Shown here: positions 1 to 51,466 of the stretch, piece after piece
How the letters are laid out: each line of letters starts with the position of its first letter
Position numbering within the stretch: position 1 is the stretch's first letter
Assembly: GCF_003073045.1 (NCBI RefSeq)
Contig: NC_037593.1
Location: 20,978,964 to 21,042,963, forward strand
DNA from: Pomacea canaliculata
Taxonomy: Eukaryota > Mollusca > Gastropoda > Architaenioglossa > Ampullariidae
Direction of reading: 5' to 3'
DNA length: 64,000 bases
Notes under the pieces: model-generated
The model's database searches: none
Seen by the model: the letters and a program-made list of their open reading frames with translations, nothing else
Told to the model about the DNA's origin: nothing
Position numbers and translations under genes: made by a program

Positions 1-590
1 CGACAGCGAAAGCCGCGCGAATCGCCAGCGAGCCAACCCGTACCACACCTTCTTCGGTCCGCTTCGAAAACCGGCTCGCGGTAGGACGGGACGCAGACAA
101 CGATCACTTTCGACCGAGGGCGTCGCACGCCGAGCGAGCGCTCAGTTGCCGATGCAAAAATCCACAACTGGGTGAGCACTACATGGCTAATAGTAACCTT
201 TCTCTATTGCCATGTTCACTTTCTAGCGCCTTTCGGCACACCCTGCGCGCCCCATATATATAGCGCCGACTTATCTCTTCCCTGCCTTATGCCACGCCTC
301 CCCATGCACCAGGCCCTCCGCACCAGACCCTCCGCACCAGACCTCCCGCACCTGACCCCCGCACCTGACCCCCTCTCGAACGTACATTTTCCAAGTTTTG
401 CACCAGACCCTCCGCACCTGACCCTCCTCTCGAACGAACATTTTAACAAGTTTGGCACCAGGCCCTCCGCACCACCCTCCGCGAGACACAGTCAAGCGTT
501 ATTCGATGCGCCGACGCGGCTGCCGAAAGGAGCAACGACGAACCCCTCTCTGCTCAACCAGCGCGCGCCTGAGACGTGAGAAAACGCGGG
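1..590. repeat. GC-rich repeat block, copy 1, with CAGACCCTCC minisatellite
   Basis: This is the first of two similar segments offset by about 585 bases: the string ACGCAGACAACGATC occurs near 91 and again near 676. Each copy has a GC-rich head, a short piece resembling CATATATATAGCGCCGAC, and then an array of CACCAGACCCTCCGCAC-type units (here about 300-480). I see no credible coding frame; the open frames are products of the repeat composition. It is either a tandemly duplicated non-autonomous element or a complex satellite. I cannot assign a family. Confidence 0.65.
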
Positions 591-1140
591 CAGCGAAAGC
601 TGCGAATCACCACCAAGCCAACCCGTACCAGACCTTCTTTCGGTCCGCTTCGAAACCGGCTCGCCAGATGACGGGACGCAGACAACGATCGCTTTCGACC
701 GAGGCTTCGCACGCCGAGCGAGCGCTCATTTGCAGATGAAAAATACAAAACTGGGTGAGCATTTCATATATAGAAACCTTTATAGCCACGGTCCCTTTCG
801 CGCACCTTTCAGGACGCCTGCTTCCCATGTATATAGCGCCGACCTTAACCATACCTGCCTTGTGCCACGCCTCCCATTGCACCAGGCCCTCCGGCACCTG
901 ACCCTCCTAGGCACCATTCCCTCCGGGTACCTGACCCTCCTTAGGCATCAACCCTCCAGGCACCTGACCCTTGCTAGGCACCAGGCCCTCCGGGCACCTG
1001 ACCCTCCCTAGGCACCAGGCCCTCCGGGCACCTAACCCTCCCTAGGCACCAGACCCTCCTGGCACCTGACCCTCGCTAGGCACCAGGCCCTCCGGGCACC
1101 TGACCCTCCCTAGGCACCAGACCCTCCCGAATCCCTTCAG
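591..1140. repeat. GC-rich repeat block, copy 2, with 34-bp minisatellite
   Basis: This is the second copy of the head seen at 1-180, followed from about 880 to 1130 by roughly seven units of a 34-base minisatellite. The unit combines CAGGCCCTCCGGGCACCTG with ACCCTCCCTAGGCAC. The array is more regular than in copy 1, which suggests local expansion after the two copies separated. No gene is visible. Confidence 0.7.
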
Positions 1141-3439: not shown

Positions 3440-3970
3440 TCGTGTTATCCAAGTCTTGCACCAGACCCTCCCATCGAAGTGGAACATTTTTAAAGTTTGG
3501 CACCAGACCCTCCGCACCCCTAGCGACCAGGTAACTAGGACGACCATCCAACAGTCTTTCTTGGAGACTGTATCAACCAATCATGAGTACTACATGGCTC
3601 TCCATTGCCTACCGTCGCCCTAGTTACACTGTGCTCAGTTCATTTACGTCATTCACTATATGACGCAAAAGAATCGTCACGCAGAGCTACGTCAGCGCTC
3701 GCGCGACTGCTCTTCCCTGACCACAGGGAGAGTTAAAAATGAACATGAATCTAGATTCGTCTCAATCGCGTATCGTTACAAACATTTTTACAAGTTTGGC
3801 ACCAGACCCTCCGGCACCAGACCCTCCGATCGAACTACAATTTTACAAGTTTTGCACCAGACCCTCCGCACCAGACCCTCCGTTCGAACTAAAATTTTTA
3901 CAAGTTTGGCACCAGACCCTCCGGCACCAGACCCTCCGATCAATCGAAAATTTTTACAAGTTTTGCACTG
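3440..3970. repeat. Third block of CAGACCCTCCG minisatellite
   Basis: Units such as GCACCAGACCCTCCG alternate with AT-richer spacers like TTTTTACAAGTTTGGC, giving composite repeats of roughly 55-60 bases. A copy of ACTACATGGCT, also found at 177-187 in block 1, occurs near 3590. The shared unit and shared flank indicate the same repeat family as the blocks at 1-1140, inserted or expanded separately. Not coding. Confidence 0.65.
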
Positions 3971-7633: not shown

Positions 7634-7640
7634 TATATAA
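7634..7640 (+). promoter_or_regulatory. TATA box of the cysteine-rich repeat gene
   Basis: TATATAA at 7634-7640 lies about 30 bases before a short presumed non-coding first exon (about 7664-7698). That exon ends at a GTATGA donor (7699). The matching acceptor (CTCACAACTCAG) ends at 8006, and 38 bases of 5' UTR then lead to the ATG at 8045. Spacing and order fit a simple TATA promoter with an intron in the 5' UTR. Confidence 0.55.
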
Positions 7641-7867
7641 ACCAAGGTCGGCTGAATGGAATGACACGTCACCTCTACACAAGGTGAACAAACTAAAGGT
7701 ATGAACAAGTTTGTCAGTTTGCTTGTTTGTGTGCTTTGGTGGTTTAATTTCGTTTCTTTGCTTTTTTATATTGCTTTATATTATTGTCTTCTGTCGCCAC
7801 TCATTCAGTATTTGTAATTATTATGTATTACTTCTAGTAAGATAAGTTTTATATTGTATCTCACAAT

Positions 7868-7999: not shown

Positions 8000-8044
8000 A
8001 ACTCAGCAGGCGAAAAGCACGAGCATCTCTCGCTATCAACAGTG

Positions 8045-11000
8045 ATGGAAAGGCTGATAATCTTCTGCGTTCTCGTTGCCATGGCAGCCGTAGGAGTCCG
8101 GGTAAGAAATGAATGAAAGAGCTTTCATACAAGTGTGTCCGTATGTACGTCTGTCTGCCTGTACAAGACGATCGCATGCCGCACGTGCGTACATTCATGC
8201 CGTTTGCACGTGTGATGACGTTGCAGGGACAGTGTGTGCCGGCCTACACCGTGGGCTGTCGTTACGGGGGATCCTCCCTCCCCTCACAGCGATGCTGCAC
8301 CAACGTCCCGCTGTACTGTAACATGGCCAACGTGTGCATCGTGAGTGCATTCACTGTAAACTTCTCCAAGTAATTCTGATATAGGACTGAAGTTTACTGC
8401 TTATTAACTTCTTATCATTGGTTTACCTGTAGCTCCTTATCTAGTTTGAACTCTTTCTTCTTCATTTTCAACGCCATGAAGTTTTGTACACCCATTAGAG
8501 AGATTGTGTTTAAGTGACCGACGACGACGACGATGATGATGATGACTATTCAAACTCCCTCCTACATTCCGTCTGTGCAGCCGTGCAAACAAGTGAATGA
8601 GATCAACTGCGTGAACACGTCAGCCACCTCACAAGCCTGCTGCCCAGGGTCGACTTGTGTGTCGGGTGTTTGTGTCGGTTCAGGGGTCAGTACATTTTGT
8701 ACGTTCATGTTCAGAGTACGTGTGAAGGATGTGAAAAGTATGTTTATTTTCTAATTTCCGCTGCTTGCCTGTAAGCAGGCTATGGTAAGCATGGTACAAT
8801 GGTCAACCTGAATCTACCACATCTACTTTGCTTTTATTTTATGTTACTTCCACCTTTGTCCTTTTAATATCCGACACACGTCACTAAAAATAACAACAGA
8901 AAAGAAAGTCTAGACAAGAAATGGTTAATGAAAGGGTATAAGAGACTTGGAAATTGAAAGTCCTCGAAAATAATTCAACGATAAGAAAATTGAACGTGGT
9001 GCATTTTGTGAAATAAAATGATACTTTTATTTGGAGTGTGTCTGGAAATATCAATGATAAATACTGTGACGAGAAACTCAACTCACAGTGAATTAACCCT
9101 TTCCAAACTGCCGGAAATATGTTCTACCAATCACTCAATCATATGAGATTTTACTTATATAGCGGTGAGATGAAATCTGTACAGGTGAGATTACATTTAC
9201 CTCTGCACACTTTAGATTACAATTATACAATTATATTTATATACAGACACATACACATAGTGTTAAAACATCTCTAACAATCATAGTGTAATACTGAATG
9301 TGTTCTCTGTGGGTTTGACAACAACAACCGCTGTTGTGTCTACAGGCAACAGTCGCAACACAGACTGCAACAACAGTGCCAACAACGACAATAAACCCGG
9401 TATGGAGTATTTTTCTGTTATTAAGTGTTGAATCGTATTCACCATCAGAAGTCACGGGTATCCAGATTGATGAGCTCTGTTTGTGGTGGAGAGAGAGAGA
9501 GAGATGTTGATGAGACAGTGCACGAGGGTTGTGTCACAAGACTGAGAGTTAACCTGCAGTTAATCAATCTTAGTTAATGTAGTCGCGGATGTTGACAGCT
9601 GATTGATGTTGATTATAGAAACGTATTTCTAGCTGTAGGAACATCACAACAGAAGAAAAACTCTAGACATGGTGTAAATAACTCCGATAGGTTTCTAAAG
9701 GACAGGTGTGCTCGGCTCTGTAGATGCACACCTACTTGAATTCACAGCTTCTGCACAAACAACACACGGACTGAAACTTTGCAATATGCTGCTGTGTATC
9801 TGTATCTGCACCTGTTTGTTTGTATTTTTTTGTCTGTATGTGCACCTGTCTGCCTGCACGTGGTCCTGACTGCCTGTCTGCACACACTCATGTACGTTTG
9901 CACGTGTGGTACAGTTTTGCGTGCGAGAGAACAACGTGGGCTGCAGGCCGTTTGGACCCGCCACCCCGTCACAGCGGTGCTGCACCAACAAACCTCTGTA
10001 CTGTAACCTGGCCAACGTGTGCATCGTAAGTATTGTGACAAAGTTGTTAAAGCGTAAATAAACTAAAAGTTCTGGACTAAATTTTCCTATGTGGAGGCTG
10101 AACTACTGCTTCATCAGTTTAACGTACAAGTTTTCTCGTCAGGGGTTTACAAGACTGTGACTTTTTACATTTTAGACCTGCCCAGTTTTTACTTTTATGA
10201 TTTGTACGACAATGTTTTACATGAGACCTTTGACCTTAAGCCTTAGGTAGTAACTTCAGGTTATTTGTAAGCCGTGGACCGTCAGATTCGGTGTGTACTA
10301 ACTGCAAGTACAACGTGTAACTCTAGTATTAAAAACCATGTACTAGCTGCAAATACACATTTTGTTCTAACATTCATCTTAAAGAATTAATAACAGAGGT
10401 TTAAAATTAAACTGAAATCGGGTAGGTCTTTAATGGGGGGCTTCAGCTGTAACTTCGCCCAGTATATTAGGATCACGGGCGTTGGTGCGTTTTGTGACCT
10501 GTGTACTTACTTGTGTTCAAGAGCAGACAGACTGGATGTTGAGGGACACATTACTGTCATAGTATCGTACAATCCCCATAATATTTCCCATCTCTCCAGC
10601 CGTGCAAACAATTGAATGAGAACTGCGTCAACACGATGGCAACCTCAAATGCCTGCTGTAAGGATCTTGTGTGTGTGTCGGGTGTTTGCAGGGCTGCAAC
10701 GGTAAGTAGTGTTTATGTTTAGTTAAACATAGCTTATGTTTAGTGTTGACCTGAAGAAGGTGAAGGATTTGAAGTAGAGCCTCAATTTTCTTATCTGTCA
10801 ATTGATTTCGTATACTTTTTGGCATTTATAAAACCAGTATCTCCACATTTTATTTGAAATCATCATCAGCAAGCTTTGGCGCCAATGAGTGGCTTGTCTT
10901 ACCAACATCAGCAAGTGCAGCCGTAAACCAAAAAGAGTGATGGAGTTGACAGAAATGTTTTGATTTCGTGAGAGACGTATCTTCTGTTACATGTGCGAGA

Positions 11001-14000
11001 ATATGCTCGCGAGATACATGTATTATAAAGCTAACTAACAAGGTTGACAGCACAGCATCACACATACAGTGTGCTTGCCATGTATGGTAGGTAGAACTAA
11101 CAAGACTATTATAAAAGAAGCTTGAAGCAGATCTCAAAAGACAATAAAATCAACAACATATAAACACAAATGGAAACATCCAATTCAGATAGGCAACTGG
11201 TGGATTAGCAACAATATGCAAGCAACTACTCCTGAAAATCTCTACTAAACACATTTCTTCTTTCCATTTCCTCTTTCTTCTGTTTGGTTGAATGAGTCTC
11301 AGTTGTCATAGTTACTCTAACGTGTTTTTCTTTGCTTGTTAATGTAAAACAATCGCTGCTGCCTGTACAGTCAACGCAGCTTACCCCAGGGACAACAATA
11401 ACGGGACCAACATCAACCATGGGGACATCTTCGACGGCGGGGACAACAACCATGGGGACATCTTCGACGGCGGGGACAACAACCATGGGGACATCGACGG
11501 TGAGGACGACATTAACTACGAGGACAACAACAACCAACCCGGTAATGTTGCTCAAGTGTATGCTCGTCTTTGTAAAAGGCGGTTTCTGGCTACATATTTA
11601 TTAATGAGCTCTGTCATGGCCACAGGTTATCTCATAAACATCAACAAAGCTGTCATAAAGCTGGCGATGAGGATCTGACTTTGTGGATCATGTCCTGTAG
11701 ACAAATGTTTCATTGTCTTCACATATTTTTGTGTTTTGATAGTCTAGACAGTGCTGAAGTAATGGAATCTTTTTTCACATAGTCGTGACACTGTTCAGAG
11801 AAAACTTTTGAGCCATAGGAACATCACGGACAAGGGGAAAATATGATGCTGTAAATAAAGTTCATCAAGGCGTGAGTGCCTAGAAATGCTACAAGATATA
11901 AGCAGATGTTTGCCCGTCTGCTTACCTATGTTTGTATGCTCACCTGTTCAGTTGTTTTTGCACTTAGCTGTGTATGCGCATCCGTCTGCCTCTATGTGTA
12001 CCTGTCTCTCATTTGTGCACCTGGGACCTATTTTTGCATTTGTCCGTGTGTGCGCTTGTCTGCATATATATTAACCTGTATACATGTGTGTACCTGTCTG
12101 CATGTACACAATATGCAATTATCTTTTGTATGGGCATACGTTTATCTACGTTTACACGTGCGGTACAGTTTTGCGTGCCAGAGAACACTGTTGGCTGCAG
12201 GGCATTTGGACCCGCCCCCCCGTCACAGCGGTGCTGCACGAACAAACCTCTGTACTGCAACCTGGCCAACGTGTGCATCGTAAGTATTGACAAACAAAGT
12301 TGTCAAAGCGTAAATAAACTGAAAGTTATGATCTCAGTTCTCATCATCGATATCTATTTTATCTGCGGAGGCTGAACTACTGCTTGTAACTACGTGTAAC
12401 TCCAACATTTGATATACACTAGTTACACATACACATGTTGCTGTAACATTCGCTTCGCAATGTGCTGGGTAGGTTCATAGCCACCCGCCTTAAACTTGCT
12501 CTTGACCTCATCTGACCAGTCCAGAGACAACGACATGAAAGACAGCTATCCACTCCCTGTTTCGACATTTTCCTAACCACAGATATCTATCAAATACCTA
12601 TGTTAGAGTATAAAGACATCTAGTGAATACAGGTACCCTCCACTCCTACCCAGCTACAGTAGCCTCACCGATTCTATGTCTTTGTGAACGTGTCAGTGTT
12701 TAAAGGTGGGTAGGGGGCACAAGGGTGGGTTTATTTGCTCCTGTGTTGGGGTCAAACCCTTTAAAGACCTAAACCAAGAAATCTGGAAATATATTGAACT
12801 CGGGTGGGTCTTAAAGGTGCTCAGGCCAGAGCTGTTACCCTTAAATAAAATAGTAGGTATGCTGGCGTGTTTTCGCGGAATACTTGTTTAAGATCAGTCT
12901 TAGATATGATATTGAAGCACACATTATTGTCATGTAAACCCCATAATATTTCCCATCTCTCCAGCCGTGCAAACAAGAAAATGAGAACTGCGTCAACACG
13001 ATGGCAACCACAGATGCCTGCTGTCCGGAACTTGTGTGTGTGTCGGGTGTTTGTGTGCGTTCAACGGTAAGTAGTGTTTAACTCTTATGTTTAGTGTTGA
13101 CCTGAAGAAGGGGAAAGATTTGAAGTAGGAGTTAGTAATATTCAAACACATCTCTTCAGAAAGTACAGCCAATATTTTCCACAAATATTTTCTTAGAAAA
13201 AAATGTTTTATGTGCCAGCTAAAGTTATGTCACTGACCTATATGTAGGAGAAAATCGGTGTAATTGAAGTGTATTTGAAAACAAAAGAAGTTTCGGTGTT
13301 TTGATGCACAAAATCAGGATTTTACAGCTAATATAATTTACCGTCATTTCATTCATTTTTCTTTCATTTGGAGATTTGTTGTTTATTTATTGTATTGTTC
13401 ATTAACAAATATTTATTGGTATTATTGCGTTTCGAGTACGTTGTTTACATGCGTACTTGCAGTAGTAAATTATTCTTTAAAAATATCAACTGGTTTATTC
13501 AGCAACTTTAATCATATTAATGAGTCTAAGCACAAGAAAAGGGAAGTGGTTCTTTCAATAGAAAGGTTGTGGATAATGTAGGATTGGGTGTTTGCGAGTT
13601 TTTATTAATTAGATAGTTAGGTTTTTACTAAGTAGCTATAATATTATTAAAACTGTAATGTATTTACGTGCCTTGACAATTTATATATAAAGAGAGATAG
13701 CTTAGCCTAAATAATGGAGCATAAACAATTTTTTTATTGAGCTACGTATTAATAAATTTAACTCTCACTCTGTCTAACTGCTCATGGGTATGGAAGTAAA
13801 GTGTAGGTGCTAAACTGTAAGCAAAACCACTGCTATACCTGTGCAGTCAACGCAACCTACAATGGGAACAACTGTATCAACCATGAGCTCATCATTAAGT
13901 ACGGGGACAGCAGCGTCAACCACGGGGTCATCGACACCAACCACGGGGTCATCGACATCAACCACGGGGTCATCGACATCAAACACGGGGACAGCAGCGT

Positions 14001-15306
14001 CAACCACGGGGTCATCGACTTAAACACGGGGACAGCAGCGTCAACCACGGGGTCATCGACGTTAAACACGGGGACAGCAGCGTCAACCACGGGGTCATCG
14101 ACGTTAAACGGGGACAGCAGCGTCAACCACGGGGTCATCGACGTTAAACACGGGGACAGCAGCGTCAACCACGGGGTCATCGACGTTAAACACGGGGACA
14201 GCAGCGTCAACCACGGGGTCATCGACGTTAAACACGGGGACAGCAGCGTCAACCACGGGGTCATCGACATCAAACACGGGGACAGCAGCGTCAACCACGG
14301 GGTCATCGACATCAAACACGGGGACAGCAGCGTCAACCACGGGGTCATCGACATCAAACACGGGGACAGAAGCGTCAACCACGGGGTCATCGACATCAAA
14401 CACGGGGACAGCAGCGTCATCCATGGGGTCATCATCCTCAACCATCGAGTCATCGTCAACAACCGATGGACCATCAACATCAAGCATGGGGTCATCGACA
14501 CCCAACACGGAGACAGCAGCGTCAACCATGGTGTCATCATCCTCGACCATCGAGTTATCGTCAACAGCCAATGATTCATCAACACCAGCCATGGGGTCAT
14601 CGTCATCAACCATGGAAACAACAACATAATCCTAGTGGGCAGCAACATCAGTCATGGAGATAACAACACCTCGGTATTTTTTCTCAGTTTATTCTCGTCT
14701 TTGTAAAATGCGACTACCGGCTACATATTTGTCAATGAGCTTAATCACGGCGCCTCATAAACATCAACTAAATTATCAAAAACATCAAAAGAATTACCAC
14801 AAAGCAGACGATGAATACCTGACTTTGTGGATATTGTTTTGTAAACAAATGTTTATTTTTACATAATTGTATGCTTTGATAGTTTACACAGAGCTAAATC
14901 TGTGGTAATTTTGTTAACGGAGTCATGTATTTTCACAAACATTTATAGCCTTGTTCACACAACAATGTCAAGAGCTGCAAGTACTGAGGAGAGAATTGTT
15001 GGGAGGAAAGAATCTTAACTAGTGTCAGTCAGAGTTTACTCCAATATAGCAAGCACACGTCGTATAGAGACTTTGTCTTAGAATTTGTATATTTACACAT
15101 TATAAATTATAACGTTTATGTTAATATATTTCATTCTGTATTTTTATAAGGTGTGTGTGTTTATGTATATGTATGCTTTGTTGTAAATGTGTGTATGTCT
15201 GTGTAATGTGTTATATATATATAATCATGAACTCCTGACACATTGCTATTTCTTTCAGCAGACGATACCAACTACGCAGCTACAATTTTCGGCATCCTTC
15301 ACTTAA
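8045..15306 (+). CDS. Secreted protein with three repeated cysteine-knot-like/mucin-like units
   Basis: Spliced model, plus strand. The signal exon 8045-8101 encodes MERLIIFCVLVAMAAVGVR. Unit 1: A 8227-8340, B 8581-8685, linker 9346-9399. Unit 2: A 9915-10025, B 10600-10701, linker 11371-11541. Unit 3: A 12169-12279, B 12965-13066, linker from 13847. Terminal exon: 15259-15306, ending in TAA. Every junction I can define is phase 0, and all have GT-AG sites. Exon A shows C-x7-C-x11-CC-x6-C-x5-C. Exon B shows C-x6/7-C-x9-CC-x4-C-x4-C. Both share the C-C-CC-C-C order of many inhibitor-cystine-knot folds. Linkers are rich in Thr and Ser, as expected for O-glycosylation. Inferred role: an extracellular, mucus- or matrix-type glycoprotein. 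I do not recognise a named family. The long third linker as printed is not one uninterrupted frame, as is common in poorly assembled repeats. The donor that would end it (about 14672) is tentative. Confidence 0.75.
8227..9399 (+). other. Unit 1 of the repeat gene (exons A1, B1, T1)
   Basis: A1 carries GCRYGGSSLPSQRCC and ends in ANVCI. B1 begins PCKQVNEINC and has one residue more than B2 and B3 between the first two cysteines. Its donor is GTCAGT rather than GTAAGT. T1 is only 18 codons, mostly Thr and Ala. This unit is the most divergent of the three, so it probably split off first. Confidence 0.75.
9915..11541 (+). other. Unit 2 of the repeat gene (exons A2, B2, T2)
   Basis: A2 reads FCVRENNVGCRPFGPATPS and then QRCC; B2 begins PCKQLNENC. 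T2 has 57 codons with three TMGTS-type repeats and ends TTNP directly before its GTAATG donor. Intron ends around A2 and B2 closely match those of unit 3, for example CATAATATTTCCCATCTCTC just before the B acceptor, so whole units with their introns were duplicated. Confidence 0.78.
12169..14672 (+). other. Unit 3 of the repeat gene (exons A3, B3, long T3)
   Basis: A3 differs from A2 at only a few residues (FCVPENTVGCRAFGPAPPS). B3 begins PCKQENENC and ends VRST before GTAAGT. T3 starts like T2 (STQ, then P and T), but its core has expanded into a 42-base array. The 3' limit at about 14672 (CCTCG before GTATTT) is placed by analogy with the T1 donor and is uncertain; a stop about 45 bases earlier is an alternative end. 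Confidence 0.65.
13905..14600 (+). repeat. 42-bp coding minisatellite (mucin-like Thr/Ser array)
   Basis: About ten tandem copies of a 42-base unit lie between about 13985 and 14415, with shorter variants on both sides. One unit translates to TGTAASTTGSSTLN or TGTAASTTGSSTSN, so half the residues are Thr or Ser. The opposite strand and the other frames also stay open for hundreds of bases because of the repeat composition. Copy number is probably variable between individuals. Confidence 0.85.
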
Positions 15307-15457
15307 GTGCCAACTACAACATCAAAGCCAAGCGGACGACCACTACAATACCCGAGATGCCATACTAGACAAATTTTCACGGATAAAAAAAAAAAAGAAG
15401 AAAAAATAGCATCTTCTACTCGGACTTTTTAATGAATGATTGGAAACTGTTTCATTT

Positions 15458-15463
15458 AATAAA
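15458..15463 (+). terminator. Poly-A signal of the repeat gene
   Basis: AATAAA occurs 152 bases after the TAA at 15304-15306 and is the first such hexamer downstream, so this is a plausible 3' end for the gene. Confidence 0.45.
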
Positions 15464-23669: not shown

Positions 23670-26407
23670 TTAGTCGACATTGAGTTTCCTGAAGGTTCCA
23701 GCCATTGTGTTAATGGCATCCTGCTGCTTTCTGACATCTCGACCCATGGTGTAGTCCACAAACCCATACTTGCTCTCTTCCTCCATTTCCTCATTACAAG
23801 TCAGCATGGTCTGTATCCAGTCCTTGTGTAAACAACACAGAATAGAACGACATGACCAGAGGGTGAAGATGTTTTTCACATGCATGAATAAACATGCTTG
23901 CACGAGCGATACAGCGGTTGGTATATATTATGGTCGCTTAATCATTGTATGACCAGATTTTCGACATCAACGAGCATCAAAATAAAGTAAGTTAGGCTCA
24001 GATATTGCAAATAGAAGACCAGACAGGTTTGTTTGATAATAATAAAGCACGTGATTTATAGAGCGAACACTCACGCTCATAAGAAGGGGGCTCTTAGAGC
24101 TTGAGACAAGAATGAAAAGCTGAGATTATAGTGAAATGTTTAGAAAAAAAAATATATATATATAACAAATATCTATTCACACCTTATCTGTAGGGGACTG
24201 GATGCATGAAAGTGTCCAGAAATATTGATATCTAACACTATACCTTGTCTGTGAAGGGTTCTGGTCTCGTGCCTCCGTACTCACGCGGGAGATGAACGGG
24301 ATCAATGAACTCGTGAAGCTTCCTCCAGTTAGTGCCGATTCTGTGCATCTGTCAGTAAATGTGGAGATATGCAAAAACTAGTATATTTCACTTTTTGAAG
24401 TATATTATAGAGGAAGAAAAAAGTAGAAAACAGGAGACACCTACGCGCTTCAATACTTTGTTCTTCATGAGAGGAGTGAAGACAGTCAGCACAAGGTCCA
24501 TGAAAGATGGTTCATTTACCAGCAGCAGTAGTTTCAGCCTGACCGGAAACGCCTCCTGAAAATAATAAGAAATAAAAAACTAAGCTATTATCGAGGACGA
24601 GTCGGTTGTCTATCTGTCGGTCGGTGTGTCTCTCGGTTAGTCACTATATCTGCCCGTCGGTCTGTCTATCGGTCTCTATCTCGAGAGTTGTCTATCGGTC
24701 TGTCTGTAGTCTGTAGAAATCTTGTTTCTTCAATTCAGTCTTCGGACTGTTCTTAGTCTGCACAAAAATCTTTGCATTTTTGTTTGTTTGAAAAATAAAT
24801 TGAGCTTTATGCATAAAAACTATTACAAAATATGCTTTCAAAGCTTTGTTATCTCGAGTTTATAACGGGTTTGGTCTCACCACATCAAATTTGTGTAAAC
24901 ATCTGAATGTTCAATAATCGTAGCTGAACAAGGCCTCTTACTTGCCATATGTATGTAAATTTTTTCCCATAGTTGAAGTCAAGGGCGTAGTCTTTCATGT
25001 GAGCCATCGTGAAGCCCTGGCAGTCTAGAATGGATGTCACTCCCCGAACTTGCGTTTCCTCGTCCTCCACATCACCGAGTAAGAGAAATGACAAGATAAA
25101 AGCTGTCACCAAGATGAAGATGACCGAAACGTATGAGTCAACAGTGATTCTTACTCGCTCCTTCACAACTTCGATATCATCATTCCCTTTCCTCACTGAC
25201 CTCGCTCTACCTCTCCCCTTTAATACTTCCCTTACTCTTTTCCGTTCCCTCCATCTCTCTCTCTTCCCCCCCTGATCTTAGTTTGCTTGAGCATTTTTAT
25301 TAGTAGATAAACTCCCGTTAAGATGATTATTACATTCGTTCTCATCAACACAATATTACGAACGTGCATTTTTCTTGCATCTCTACCTGAATCATTTTGG
25401 ATATGTTGAGGAACTCAGCCTTGAGTAGATCCTCCATTGAATATCGAGTTGAATCCACCCTTCCTGTACAATAAATGGTCGCCCTGTTGTTTTTATGACT
25501 TTGTTTTAAAGATGTGCAAGCAAAGTATAAAGTTTACTCGCCCTTGCAGTAAATATTTCAACCAGCCTTGTTCCAATCAGTCAATCAACTTTTGTATCAG
25601 AAGCTCCTATTAGTCGATAGTCCCTTAAAAATCATAATACAATTTATTGCAAAGATAGACTACACAGGAGAAAGTAGAGCAAGGTGATCAGATCAACAAC
25701 GACTGAATGCAGCTCTGTAAAGGTGTGCAGCCACCTGTAAAGGTGTTCACCTGTTCAAGCCAGTCATCGCAACAAGACAGCACCAATACAAACCAGAATA
25801 TGTGATGTAGACTTGTCGCCCCAGCCTATCTCGAAAGGGGAGGGGGAAGGCGACGGAGGTCGGGTACACGTGCAGGACGTTGAGCGGCTTCAAGCCCGTG
25901 TACATGCGTGCATCCTGCTTCTTCATGCGGTAGTACTTGAGAATCATGTCGAACGCCTGCTCCTGGTCGAACTTGCGCGCGCGTAGGAAACGTAGTAGAA
26001 ACCTCGTGTCTGTGTTGGGCCTTAGACCTGCGTCACCAAACCCACACTTTGTGCGATAAATAACCCCTTCATCAACATCCAATAACCTACCCACCCATCT
26101 ATTCAATAACCCACCTGTCCGCCTACCCATCCCCTAGTTCATCTTCCCAAGGAGACCGACCAAGAAACATGGACTTATGGAATTATTTCTTACATCGAGA
26201 AACTGAACCAAAATAAAAGCAGCACATTACACACTTGCGAGGGAGAACTTGCAGCACCTCACCGTGTCCGTACTGAAGAAGACGCTCTCGGAAGGCTTTC
26301 ACTTCTAACATCCGGGTGACCGGGTCTTCGCGGAGCTTCAGCTTGGCGTATTCCAGACTTTCCTTCGATAAACTGCACGTGTACTCGGACATGTCCTTGC
26401 AAGCCAT
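23670..26407 (-). CDS. CRAL-TRIO lipid-transfer protein, alpha-tocopherol transfer protein/clavesin-like
   Basis: Seven minus-strand exons: 26407-26263, 26027-25794, 25463-25387, 25064-24942, 24555-24445, 24348-24244, 23822-23670. They join without any frame conflict (948 bases, 315 residues plus TAA), close to the 280-350 usual for the family. The start MACKDMSEYTCSLSKESL was chosen because it begins a continuous frame just after an upstream acceptor near 26449. Residues 49-70 (TRFLLRFLRARKFDQEQAF) are the CRAL-TRIO N-terminal helices. The lipid-binding domain follows: SILDCQGFTMAHM (about 163-175), LLLLVNEPSFMDLV, FTPLMKNK and LPREYGG (about 251-257), each matching a conserved block of TTPA/TTPAL/CLVS. 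Known relatives are cytosolic carriers of tocopherol, retinoids or phosphoinositides; the ligand here cannot be told from sequence. The last 50 residues are acidic, then polar, and less conserved. Confidence 0.9.
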
Positions 26408-50560: not shown

Positions 50561-50567
50561 ACTCATC

Positions 50568-50815
50568 AACATGAACCATTTGTTATCAAATATCAACATG
50601 AACCATTCATCAAATATCAACATGAACCATTCATCAAATATTAACATGAACCATTTGTTATCAAATATCAACATGAACCATTTGTTATCAAATATCAACA
50701 CAAACCATTTATCAAATATCAACACGAACCATTTATCAAATATCAACATGAACCATTTGTTATCAAATATTAACATGAACCATTTATTATAAAATATTAT
50801 AAACCATTTGTCATG
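50568..50815. repeat. 24/27-bp minisatellite
   Basis: About nine tandem copies of ATCAACATGAACCATTTGTT plus ATCAAAT, alternating with a shorter form using ATTCATCAAAT. Long open frames on both strands come from the repeat alone. Confidence 0.85.
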
Positions 50816-51466
50816 AAAAATAACAGGATTTTCTCCACATTGATGATCAAGCAAACCATCATGACGCATGGAGACTGAGACCTCACTGATAACCATCATG
50901 ATACACGCATGCTGACTGAGGCAATCTCAAATAACATTTTGCAATTTACTCATTCCTTCCATCAGCAGTCTCTTTCTGAAATAAACATTGTATTAGATCT
51001 TTTCTAATGTTGACAAAATTTAGACTGTTGATGTTTTTTGGTCAAAGATTTAAAAAAAAATAGAGTAATTCCATTTAAGCCAGTAAAAAAGGGTTTGTAA
51101 ATATATGGGGACACAACAACAAAAGCTTCATAACAGAAAAATACATTTTGACCCTTGCAGTCATAGTTATACTCACTCATTCATGACATCATTATGGAGA
51201 ATGCTTTTAAAGCCATTTTTCTATATTTTGATGGCTATCTAGTCAAACTGTTTTTATGATGACAGCACATTAAGAATTCCCATCCTGAACAAGGGAAACT
51301 ATTTTTAATCACAGAAAATGTGCATGTTGTTTTTCAACATATGTTAACGACTTAATAATTCTGGTCGCCTGTTAAAAAGAATTTTTTAAAAAATAGCATG
51401 TGATCAGCTTTTTTCATGATGTATAACATGAAAAAGAGAAGCTCACAGTTCTGTGGCCACAAAAAT

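What the first reader, a model, noticed from the sequence alone, without database searches (positions are those of the whole stretch)
8045..15306. Secreted protein built from three phase-0 exon triplets (knot A, knot B, Thr/Ser linker)
Seen: a signal exon, then A-B-linker repeated three times. Every legible exon is flanked by phase-0 introns, and TATA box, 5' UTR intron, terminal exon and AATAAA are all in place. Known: symmetric exons are the classic substrate for exon duplication. Inference: a modular secreted gene that grows by whole units, alternating two different six-cysteine modules with glycosylated spacers. I know no described family with this exact A-B-mucin layout.
Basis: partly seen in the sequence, partly recalled or inferred. 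Interest (0 to 1): 0.87.

Follow-up and report, generated by a model that had tools for sequence, protein, structure and literature searches.

The report
Secreted protein of repeated knot-knot-linker exons
This stretch of a eukaryotic, probably animal, genome looks like a gene for a secreted protein made of three repeats of two small disulfide knots plus a threonine/serine-rich spacer, each on its own exon; one whole repeat seems to have been copied inside the gene, and a stop in the last spacer means the far end is not as first drawn.

Summary
The exon chain holds up to the third linker. A six-cysteine knot pattern (C-C-CC-C-C) occurs six times in the window, all six here, in the order A-B, A-B, A-B; shuffled windows give 0.15. 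Nine of nine coding exons from the signal exon to B3 are multiples of three with phase-0 introns. Units 2 and 3 match through exons and introns, and the homology ends inside linker-to-A introns, so a whole A-B-linker block was duplicated. Linker 3 is not intact: it meets TAA at 14021 and its homologous donor is out of phase, so the terminal exon is reachable in frame only by skipping it. Models of A and B resemble inhibitor cystine knots, weakly; no Pfam family passes its cut-off. Conotoxin, mussel CRP-I and family I84 membership fail on phase or cysteine spacing. In mussel mCRP-I and spider Hc1a genes, as reported, knots multiplied inside one exon; here they multiplied as exons. Best reading: a secreted, multivalent knot protein on mucin-like spacers, target unknown. 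Transcription, species and function are untested. New variant of a known kind.

The parts
7634..7640 (+). TATA-box-like sequence TATATAA
   Evidence: sequence; promoter activity not tested
7661..7698 (+). possible 5' UTR exon 1 (start inferred from the TATA box)
   Evidence: GT at 7699; no transcript
8010..8101 (+). exon 2: end of 5' UTR and signal peptide from ATG 8045 (19 codons)
   Evidence: hydrophobic N-terminus read by eye
8227..8340 (+). exon A1, six-cysteine knot module A, 38 aa, phase 0-0
8581..8685 (+). exon B1, six-cysteine knot module B, 35 aa, phase 0-0
9346..9399 (+). exon L1, Thr-rich linker, 18 aa, phase 0-0 (least certain exon)
   Evidence: Thr+Ser 0.44
9793..11780 (+). duplicated segment, copy in unit 2 (intron part - A2 - B2 - L2 - intron part)
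   Evidence: local alignments; blastn 9890-11758
9915..10025 (+). exon A2, knot A, 37 aa
10600..10701 (+). exon B2, knot B, 34 aa
11371..11541 (+). exon L2, Thr/Ser-rich linker, 57 aa, with a 33-bp tandem repeat
11995..14938 (+). duplicated segment, copy in unit 3
   Evidence: local alignments; blastn 12144-14898
12169..12279 (+). exon A3, knot A, 37 aa
12965..13066 (+). exon B3, knot B, 34 aa
13847..14023 (+). start of linker L3 up to the first in-frame stop (58 codons + TAA 14021-14023)
   Evidence: Thr+Ser 0.67
13901..14433 (+). 42-bp tandem array in L3 (12.8 copies, 94% matches)
   Evidence: one spacing of 20 and one of 19 bases among half-units of 21
14674..14675 (+). GT that corresponds to the donor of L2, out of phase for L3
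   Evidence: homology of the following intron; length
15259..15306 (+). possible terminal exon with TAA 15304-15306, phase 0 at its acceptor
   Evidence: no transcript
15458..15463 (+). AATAAA polyadenylation-like signal

Best explanation
A gene for a secreted modular protein: signal peptide, then three units of knot A (6 Cys), knot B (6 Cys) and a Thr/Ser-rich linker, 367 aa up to the first in-frame stop. Shown from sequence: the exon layout, the phases, the conserved cysteines, and one intragenic duplication of a whole A-B-linker block with both ends in linker-to-A introns. Inferred: each pair folds as two adjacent inhibitor cystine knots; the linkers are O-glycosylated and stiff like mucin; the protein stays in one piece and shows several copies of one binding face to an extracellular partner (microbe, protease or matrix glycan) in a mucous or matrix layer. 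Because every exon is 0-0, units can be gained, lost or skipped without breaking the frame, so binding strength can be tuned by copy number; linkers lengthen separately by repeat slippage. The last linker has lost its frame in this assembly (real lesion, allele or assembly error).
For: Six of six knot-pattern hits of the window in this locus, expected 0.15. Nine of nine phase-0 exons. Units 2 and 3: introns aligned over 188, 62, 118 and 233 columns at 82, 97, 86 and 79% identity, scores 86, 88, 47 and 149 against shuffle maxima of 25, 35, 26 and 30. A2/A3 changes: 5 synonymous, 4 nonsynonymous, neutral nonsynonymous share 0.76, p 0.04, so A looks constrained. No dibasic site in any of ten pieces, so no sign of a peptide precursor. 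Linkers 44, 60 and 67% Thr+Ser. Best models: A mean pLDDT 87, B 81; most Foldseek matches of A (6 of 8) and many of the 38 of B are small knot peptides.
Against: No transcript or protein seen. The chain breaks in linker 3. B2/B3 changes are 2 synonymous, 12 nonsynonymous, not different from neutral (p 0.75), so B could be unconstrained or diversifying. The other four models of A have pLDDT 60-68 and no Foldseek match reaches E 0.001. No relative found: 0 of 14 pattern stretches in genome contigs, 0 of 26 (A) and 0 of 11 (B) in viral contigs were confirmed, but these hold no animal genomes. Glycosylation and binding are pure inference.
Confidence: 0.55

Rival explanations
1. A multi-headed protease inhibitor: each A-B pair is one inhibitory unit, as in molluscan family I84 where two different six-cysteine modules sit on two successive exons, here repeated like multi-headed Kazal inhibitors.
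For: A+B is 71-73 aa with 12 cysteines on two exons; I84 mature peptides have about 70 aa, 12 cysteines, 6 on exon 2 and 6 on exon 3 (PMC9198434 passages). Best Foldseek match of B, and fifth of A, is the fungal protease inhibitor AmFPI-1 (3bt4), E 0.64 and 6.3.
Against: I84 cysteine array not met in 0 of 3 pairs tested positive; I84 intron phases are not 0; Foldseek matches are not significant; no inhibitory loop known.
Confidence: 0.2
2. A precursor from which single ICK peptides are cut out, for venom or defence.
For: B2 and B3 have the cysteine spacing 6-9-0-4-4 of muO-conotoxin MfVIA; B changes mostly at non-cysteine sites.
Against: No dibasic sites in ten of ten pieces and no pro-region between signal and A1; phases differ from the conotoxin genes described in PMC3862624; sequence match to MfVIA has E 0.075.
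Confidence: 0.1
3. A decaying gene: linker 3 has lost its frame and the locus is on the way to a pseudogene, or transcripts with the early stop are degraded.
For: Frame-0 stops at 14021, 14063, 14105, 14627, 14633; L3 donor out of phase; B2/B3 changes near neutral.
Against: Nine of nine upstream exons intact, 36 of 36 cysteines kept, A2/A3 constrained. The stop lies after all knots, so a 367-aa protein is still encoded. Irregular spacings of 20 and 19 within an array of 21-base half-units could also be an assembly error.
Confidence: 0.15
4. Chance or artefact: the exons are not a gene.
For: No transcript available.
Against: Six pattern hits against 0.15 expected; splice borders and phase agree in all nine exons.
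Confidence: 0.01

Closest known systems
Mussel CRP-I family, multi-knot branch mCRP-I (PMC10138031, passages seen)
   Same: Secreted molluscan C-C-CC-C-C peptides; several knots in one product; tandem duplication of the knot.
   Different: There the whole cysteine-rich part lies in exon 4 whatever the number of knots, and the authors call exon duplication not plausible; loop spacing differs (array met by 0 of 6 modules); no alternation of two knots or mucin-like linkers mentioned in the passages seen.
Bivalent spider ICK toxins, Hc1a subfamily (PMC13172734, passages seen)
   Same: Two or three knots in one secreted chain.
   Different: Introns of phase 1 and 2; both knots in exon 3; reported to arise by duplication inside the exon. 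Short conserved linker instead of Thr/Ser-rich spacers.
MEROPS family I84 molluscan protease inhibitors (PMC9198434, abstract and passages seen)
   Same: Two different six-cysteine modules on two successive exons; about 70 aa and 12 cysteines per pair; signal peptide.
   Different: Cysteine array (CxC, no adjacent CC) and intron phases differ; one pair per gene; no linkers.
Conotoxins with framework VI/VII (PMC3862624 passages; PDB 2n7f, 1rmk)
   Same: C-C-CC-C-C; spacing of B2/B3 equals that of MfVIA.
   Different: Three exons with one mature peptide; pro-region; intron phases mostly 1 and 2 in the superfamilies reported; no repeats.
Multi-ShKT proteins of the vampire snail Cumia (PMC6409789, passages seen)
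   Same: Snail secreted proteins with two to four six-cysteine modules in tandem.
   Different: ShKT is another cysteine fold; exon structure not given in the passages seen.

Membership tests
Inhibitor cystine knot (knottin) fold | six cysteines in the order C-C-CC-C-C | tested here: met
   6 of 6 modules
Inhibitor cystine knot (knottin) fold | disulfides 1-4, 2-5, 3-6 and the knot fold | tested here: inconclusive
   AlphaFold models resemble ICK peptides but no Foldseek match at E 0.001 or better; disulfides not measured
Conotoxins, framework VI/VII | cysteine framework C-C-CC-C-C | tested here: met
   sequence match weak, E 0.075
Conotoxins, framework VI/VII | signal, pro-region and one mature peptide on three exons, intron phases mostly 1 then 2 | tested here: not met
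   phase-0 introns, no pro-region, six knots; family features from passages of PMC3862624, where phases of O1 itself are not stated
Mussel CRP-I | array C(X3-6)C(X1-7)CC(X3-4)C(X3-5)C | tested here: not met
   0 of 6 modules; array
Mussel CRP-I | all knots in exon 4 | tested here: not met
   each knot on its own exon
MEROPS I84 | 12-cysteine array with CxC at positions 5-6 and 11-12 | tested here: not met
   0 of 3 A-B pairs; array
MEROPS I84 | two six-cysteine modules on two successive exons | tested here: met
MEROPS I84 | inhibition of subtilisin-type proteases | not testable with these tools
   needs protein
Dickkopf N-terminal region | Pfam PF04706 above its cut-off of 25 bits | tested here: not met
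   14.4 bits at best for single exons, 13.1 for joined A-B
Gel-forming mucin | Thr/Ser-rich, O-glycosylated tandem repeats | tested here: inconclusive
   Thr+Ser 44-67% and tandem repeats; glycosylation not tested
Gel-forming mucin | VWD/C8/TIL domains | tested here: not met
   no such Pfam match in the six cysteine exons; other exons of the locus not scanned

The most novel reading that the evidence does not exclude
A so far undescribed family in which inhibitor cystine knots are built like extracellular matrix modules: two different knots and a mucin-like spacer on separate phase-0 exons, multiplied as a cassette by recombination between introns, so that valency and spacing evolve separately. 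It would be a second route to multi-knot proteins beside duplication within one exon.
Probability: 0.45. Interest if true: 0.62.

Novelty: new variant of a known kind. Interest (0 to 1): 0.5.

Why it matters
Reports on mussel mCRP-I and spider Hc1a looked for exon shuffling behind multi-knot proteins and excluded it (passages). A locus in which each knot has its own symmetric exon and a whole cassette was copied gives a case of the excluded route, with traceable breakpoints in introns. Copy number and linker length can be compared between individuals and species to ask what multivalency is selected for.

Tried and rejected
A and B as copies of one knot: profile comparison gave probability 1.7%; cysteine-preserving shuffles reached the observed score 40 to 686 times of 1000 over nine A-B pairs, one pair of nine below 5%. 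Not supported, not excluded.

Zinc ribbon of IFT122 (PF25144): joined A3-B3 scores 21.5 bits, E 2.1e-4, below the cut-off of 27; PDB match to IFT122 E 0.062; 0 of 5000 cysteine-preserving shuffles reach the score for each of three pairs (but the segment was chosen after the fact). The match spans the A/B joint. The first zinc knuckle is not kept and the protein has a signal peptide, so I take it for convergence, without proof.

Dickkopf and Toxin_12: below cut-off. Further copies in the window: none beyond the six by tblastn; the next hits have E 0.055 or worse. Relatives in prokaryote and viral collections: none confirmed. Rfam: no match in the window. Second-look structure alignment was not available.
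Full report
What is there. The stretch 7.6-15.5 kb of the + strand reads as one gene. TATATAA lies at 7634, a possible 5' UTR intron runs from GT 7699 to AG 8008-8009, and ATG 8045 opens a 19-codon signal sequence that ends at a GT. Then follow A1 8227-8340, B1 8581-8685, L1 9346-9399, A2 9915-10025, B2 10600-10701, L2 11371-11541, A3 12169-12279, B3 12965-13066 and the beginning of L3 at 13847. Nine of nine coding exons up to B3 are multiples of three, and the introns between them begin with GT and end with AG, all in phase 0.

More than chance. I scanned six frames of the 64-kb window for C-C-CC-C-C with loose loop lengths and no stop. There are six hits, and all six are the A and B exons. 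Sixty dinucleotide shuffles of the window gave 0.15 hits on average and never more than one; 300 shuffles of the gene region gave 0.03 and never more than one. Module A has spacing 7-11-0-6-5 in three of three copies; B has 6-9-0-4-4 in two copies and 7-9-0-4-4 in B1. All 36 cysteines are kept. A tblastn of all six modules against the window finds only these six; the next hits have E 0.055 or worse.

One whole unit was copied. Units 2 and 3 are alike in introns as well as exons. Best local alignments: A-to-B introns 188 columns at 82%, B-to-linker introns 62 columns at 97%, linker-to-A introns (3' parts) 118 columns at 86%, and the introns that follow L2 and L3 233 columns at 79%; scores 86, 88, 47 and 149 against 25, 35, 26 and 30 as the best of 20 shuffles each. 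The homology starts at 9793/11995 and ends near 11780/14938, both inside linker-to-A introns; blastn gives the same order with narrower limits, 9890/12144 to 11758/14898. So the copied block is A-B-linker with parts of its flanking introns. Unit 1 matches units 2 and 3 in the exons, and in its introns only in part of the intron before A (73 columns, score 45 against 25; 29 columns, 31 against 25); its other introns do not exceed shuffles. It is therefore older or arose otherwise.

Linkers. L1 has 18, L2 57 residues; L3 has 58 codons before a stop. Thr+Ser make up 44, 60 and 67%. L2 holds a 33-bp tandem repeat and L3 a 42-bp array of 12.8 copies, 94% matches. So linkers seem to lengthen by slippage inside the exon, a second process beside unit copying (inference).

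What is wrong with the first drawing. L3 meets TAA at 14021-14023; frame 0 has four more stops at 14063, 14105, 14627 and 14633. Among 30 spacings between marked half-units, 26 are 21 bases, two are 42, one is 20 and one is 19; the frame is lost near the odd ones. The GT that corresponds to the donor of L2 (14674) leaves 827 nt, not divisible by three. Thus the terminal exon 15259-15306 cannot follow the full L3 in frame. It can follow B3 in frame. Either the message ends in L3 (367 aa), or L3 is skipped, or the array is wrong in the assembly. I did not read through or mend the array. If the L3 donor is used, a stop about 650 nt before a splice joint might invite decay of the message (general rule, recalled).

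Selection. Between A2 and A3 there are 5 synonymous and 4 nonsynonymous changes where 76% nonsynonymous is the neutral expectation (p 0.04); between B2 and B3 2 and 12 with 78% expected (p 0.75). A looks constrained; B is compatible with neutrality apart from its fixed cysteines. The counts are small.

Fold and families. AlphaFold2 models from three-row alignments: A mean pLDDT 87 for the best model, but 60-68 for the other four; B 81, with three more at 78-80 and one at 60. Foldseek in the PDB gave 8 matches for A and 38 for B at E up to 10, none at 0.001; most for A and many for B are spider, scorpion and cone-snail knot peptides, and the protease inhibitor AmFPI-1 is first for B and fifth for A. 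Sequence searches of the PDB gave nothing better than E 0.06: muO-conotoxins for B (E 0.075, 0.13), IFT122 for joined A3-B3 (E 0.062). With the three-row profile of B, MfVIA falls to E 4.9 and 'Superfamily Pmag-02' leads at 0.13. No Pfam family passes its cut-off. A and B are not demonstrably related to each other.

How it most likely works. There is no dibasic site in ten of ten pieces and no pro-region, so a chopped-up precursor is unlikely. I read a secreted chain of three A-B heads on Thr/Ser-rich spacers, probably O-glycosylated, that binds an extracellular partner with several heads at once. A has three aromatic residues per copy and B none, so A might carry a binding face (speculation). 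The layout and the duplication are shown by sequence; fold, glycosylation, binding and tissue are inferred. The chief rival is a multi-headed protease inhibitor.

Compared with what is known. In mussel mCRP-I the knots all lie in exon 4 and the authors reject exon duplication (PMC10138031, passages). In spiders, the Hc1a subfamily carries both knots in exon 3 and the authors reject exon shuffling; DkTx probably arose otherwise, for instance by transposition or recombination between single-knot paralogues (PMC13172734, passages). Molluscan I84 inhibitors do have two six-cysteine modules on exons 2 and 3 (PMC9198434, abstract and passages), so separate exons for two modules are not new; but their cysteine array and phases differ and there is one pair per gene. 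Conotoxin genes have three exons and phases mostly 1 and 2 (PMC3862624, passages). Snail multi-ShKT proteins have two to four modules of another fold (PMC6409789, passages). The limpet adhesive proteins in the passages seen of PMC7333891 carry other domains. PMC6891753 passages had nothing to the point. Nine literature searches showed no paper with this layout among the entries listed; they cover open-access papers only and lists are capped.

Limits. No animal sequence collection could be searched; the prokaryote and viral scans say little. No RNA evidence exists here.

Noticed in passing
window 24885-26133, - strand: Two ORFs look like exons of a CRAL-TRIO (SEC14-like) gene: CRAL_TRIO_N 34.2 bits, above its cut-off of 23, at 25747-26133; CRAL_TRIO 16.3 bits, below its cut-off, at 24885-25277.
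   Followed up: partly
window 8287-8355 with 8581-8592, and the same places in units 2 and 3: The end of knot A plus the start of knot B resembles the zinc ribbon of the ciliary protein IFT122 across the exon joint (Pfam E 2.1e-4 for A3-B3, below cut-off). Probably convergence, unexplained.
   Followed up: partly
window 306-1127 and 3784-3968: Tandem repeats built from GCACCAGACCCTCC-like units occur at both places, perhaps one repeat family.
   Followed up: no
window 50565-50825: Array of 24-27-base units (ATCAACATGAACCATT...) with a long minus-strand open frame.
   Followed up: no
window 15304-15360: After the TAA of the terminal exon the same frame goes on with Thr-rich codons (read by eye), so the terminal exon may once have been longer.
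   Followed up: no
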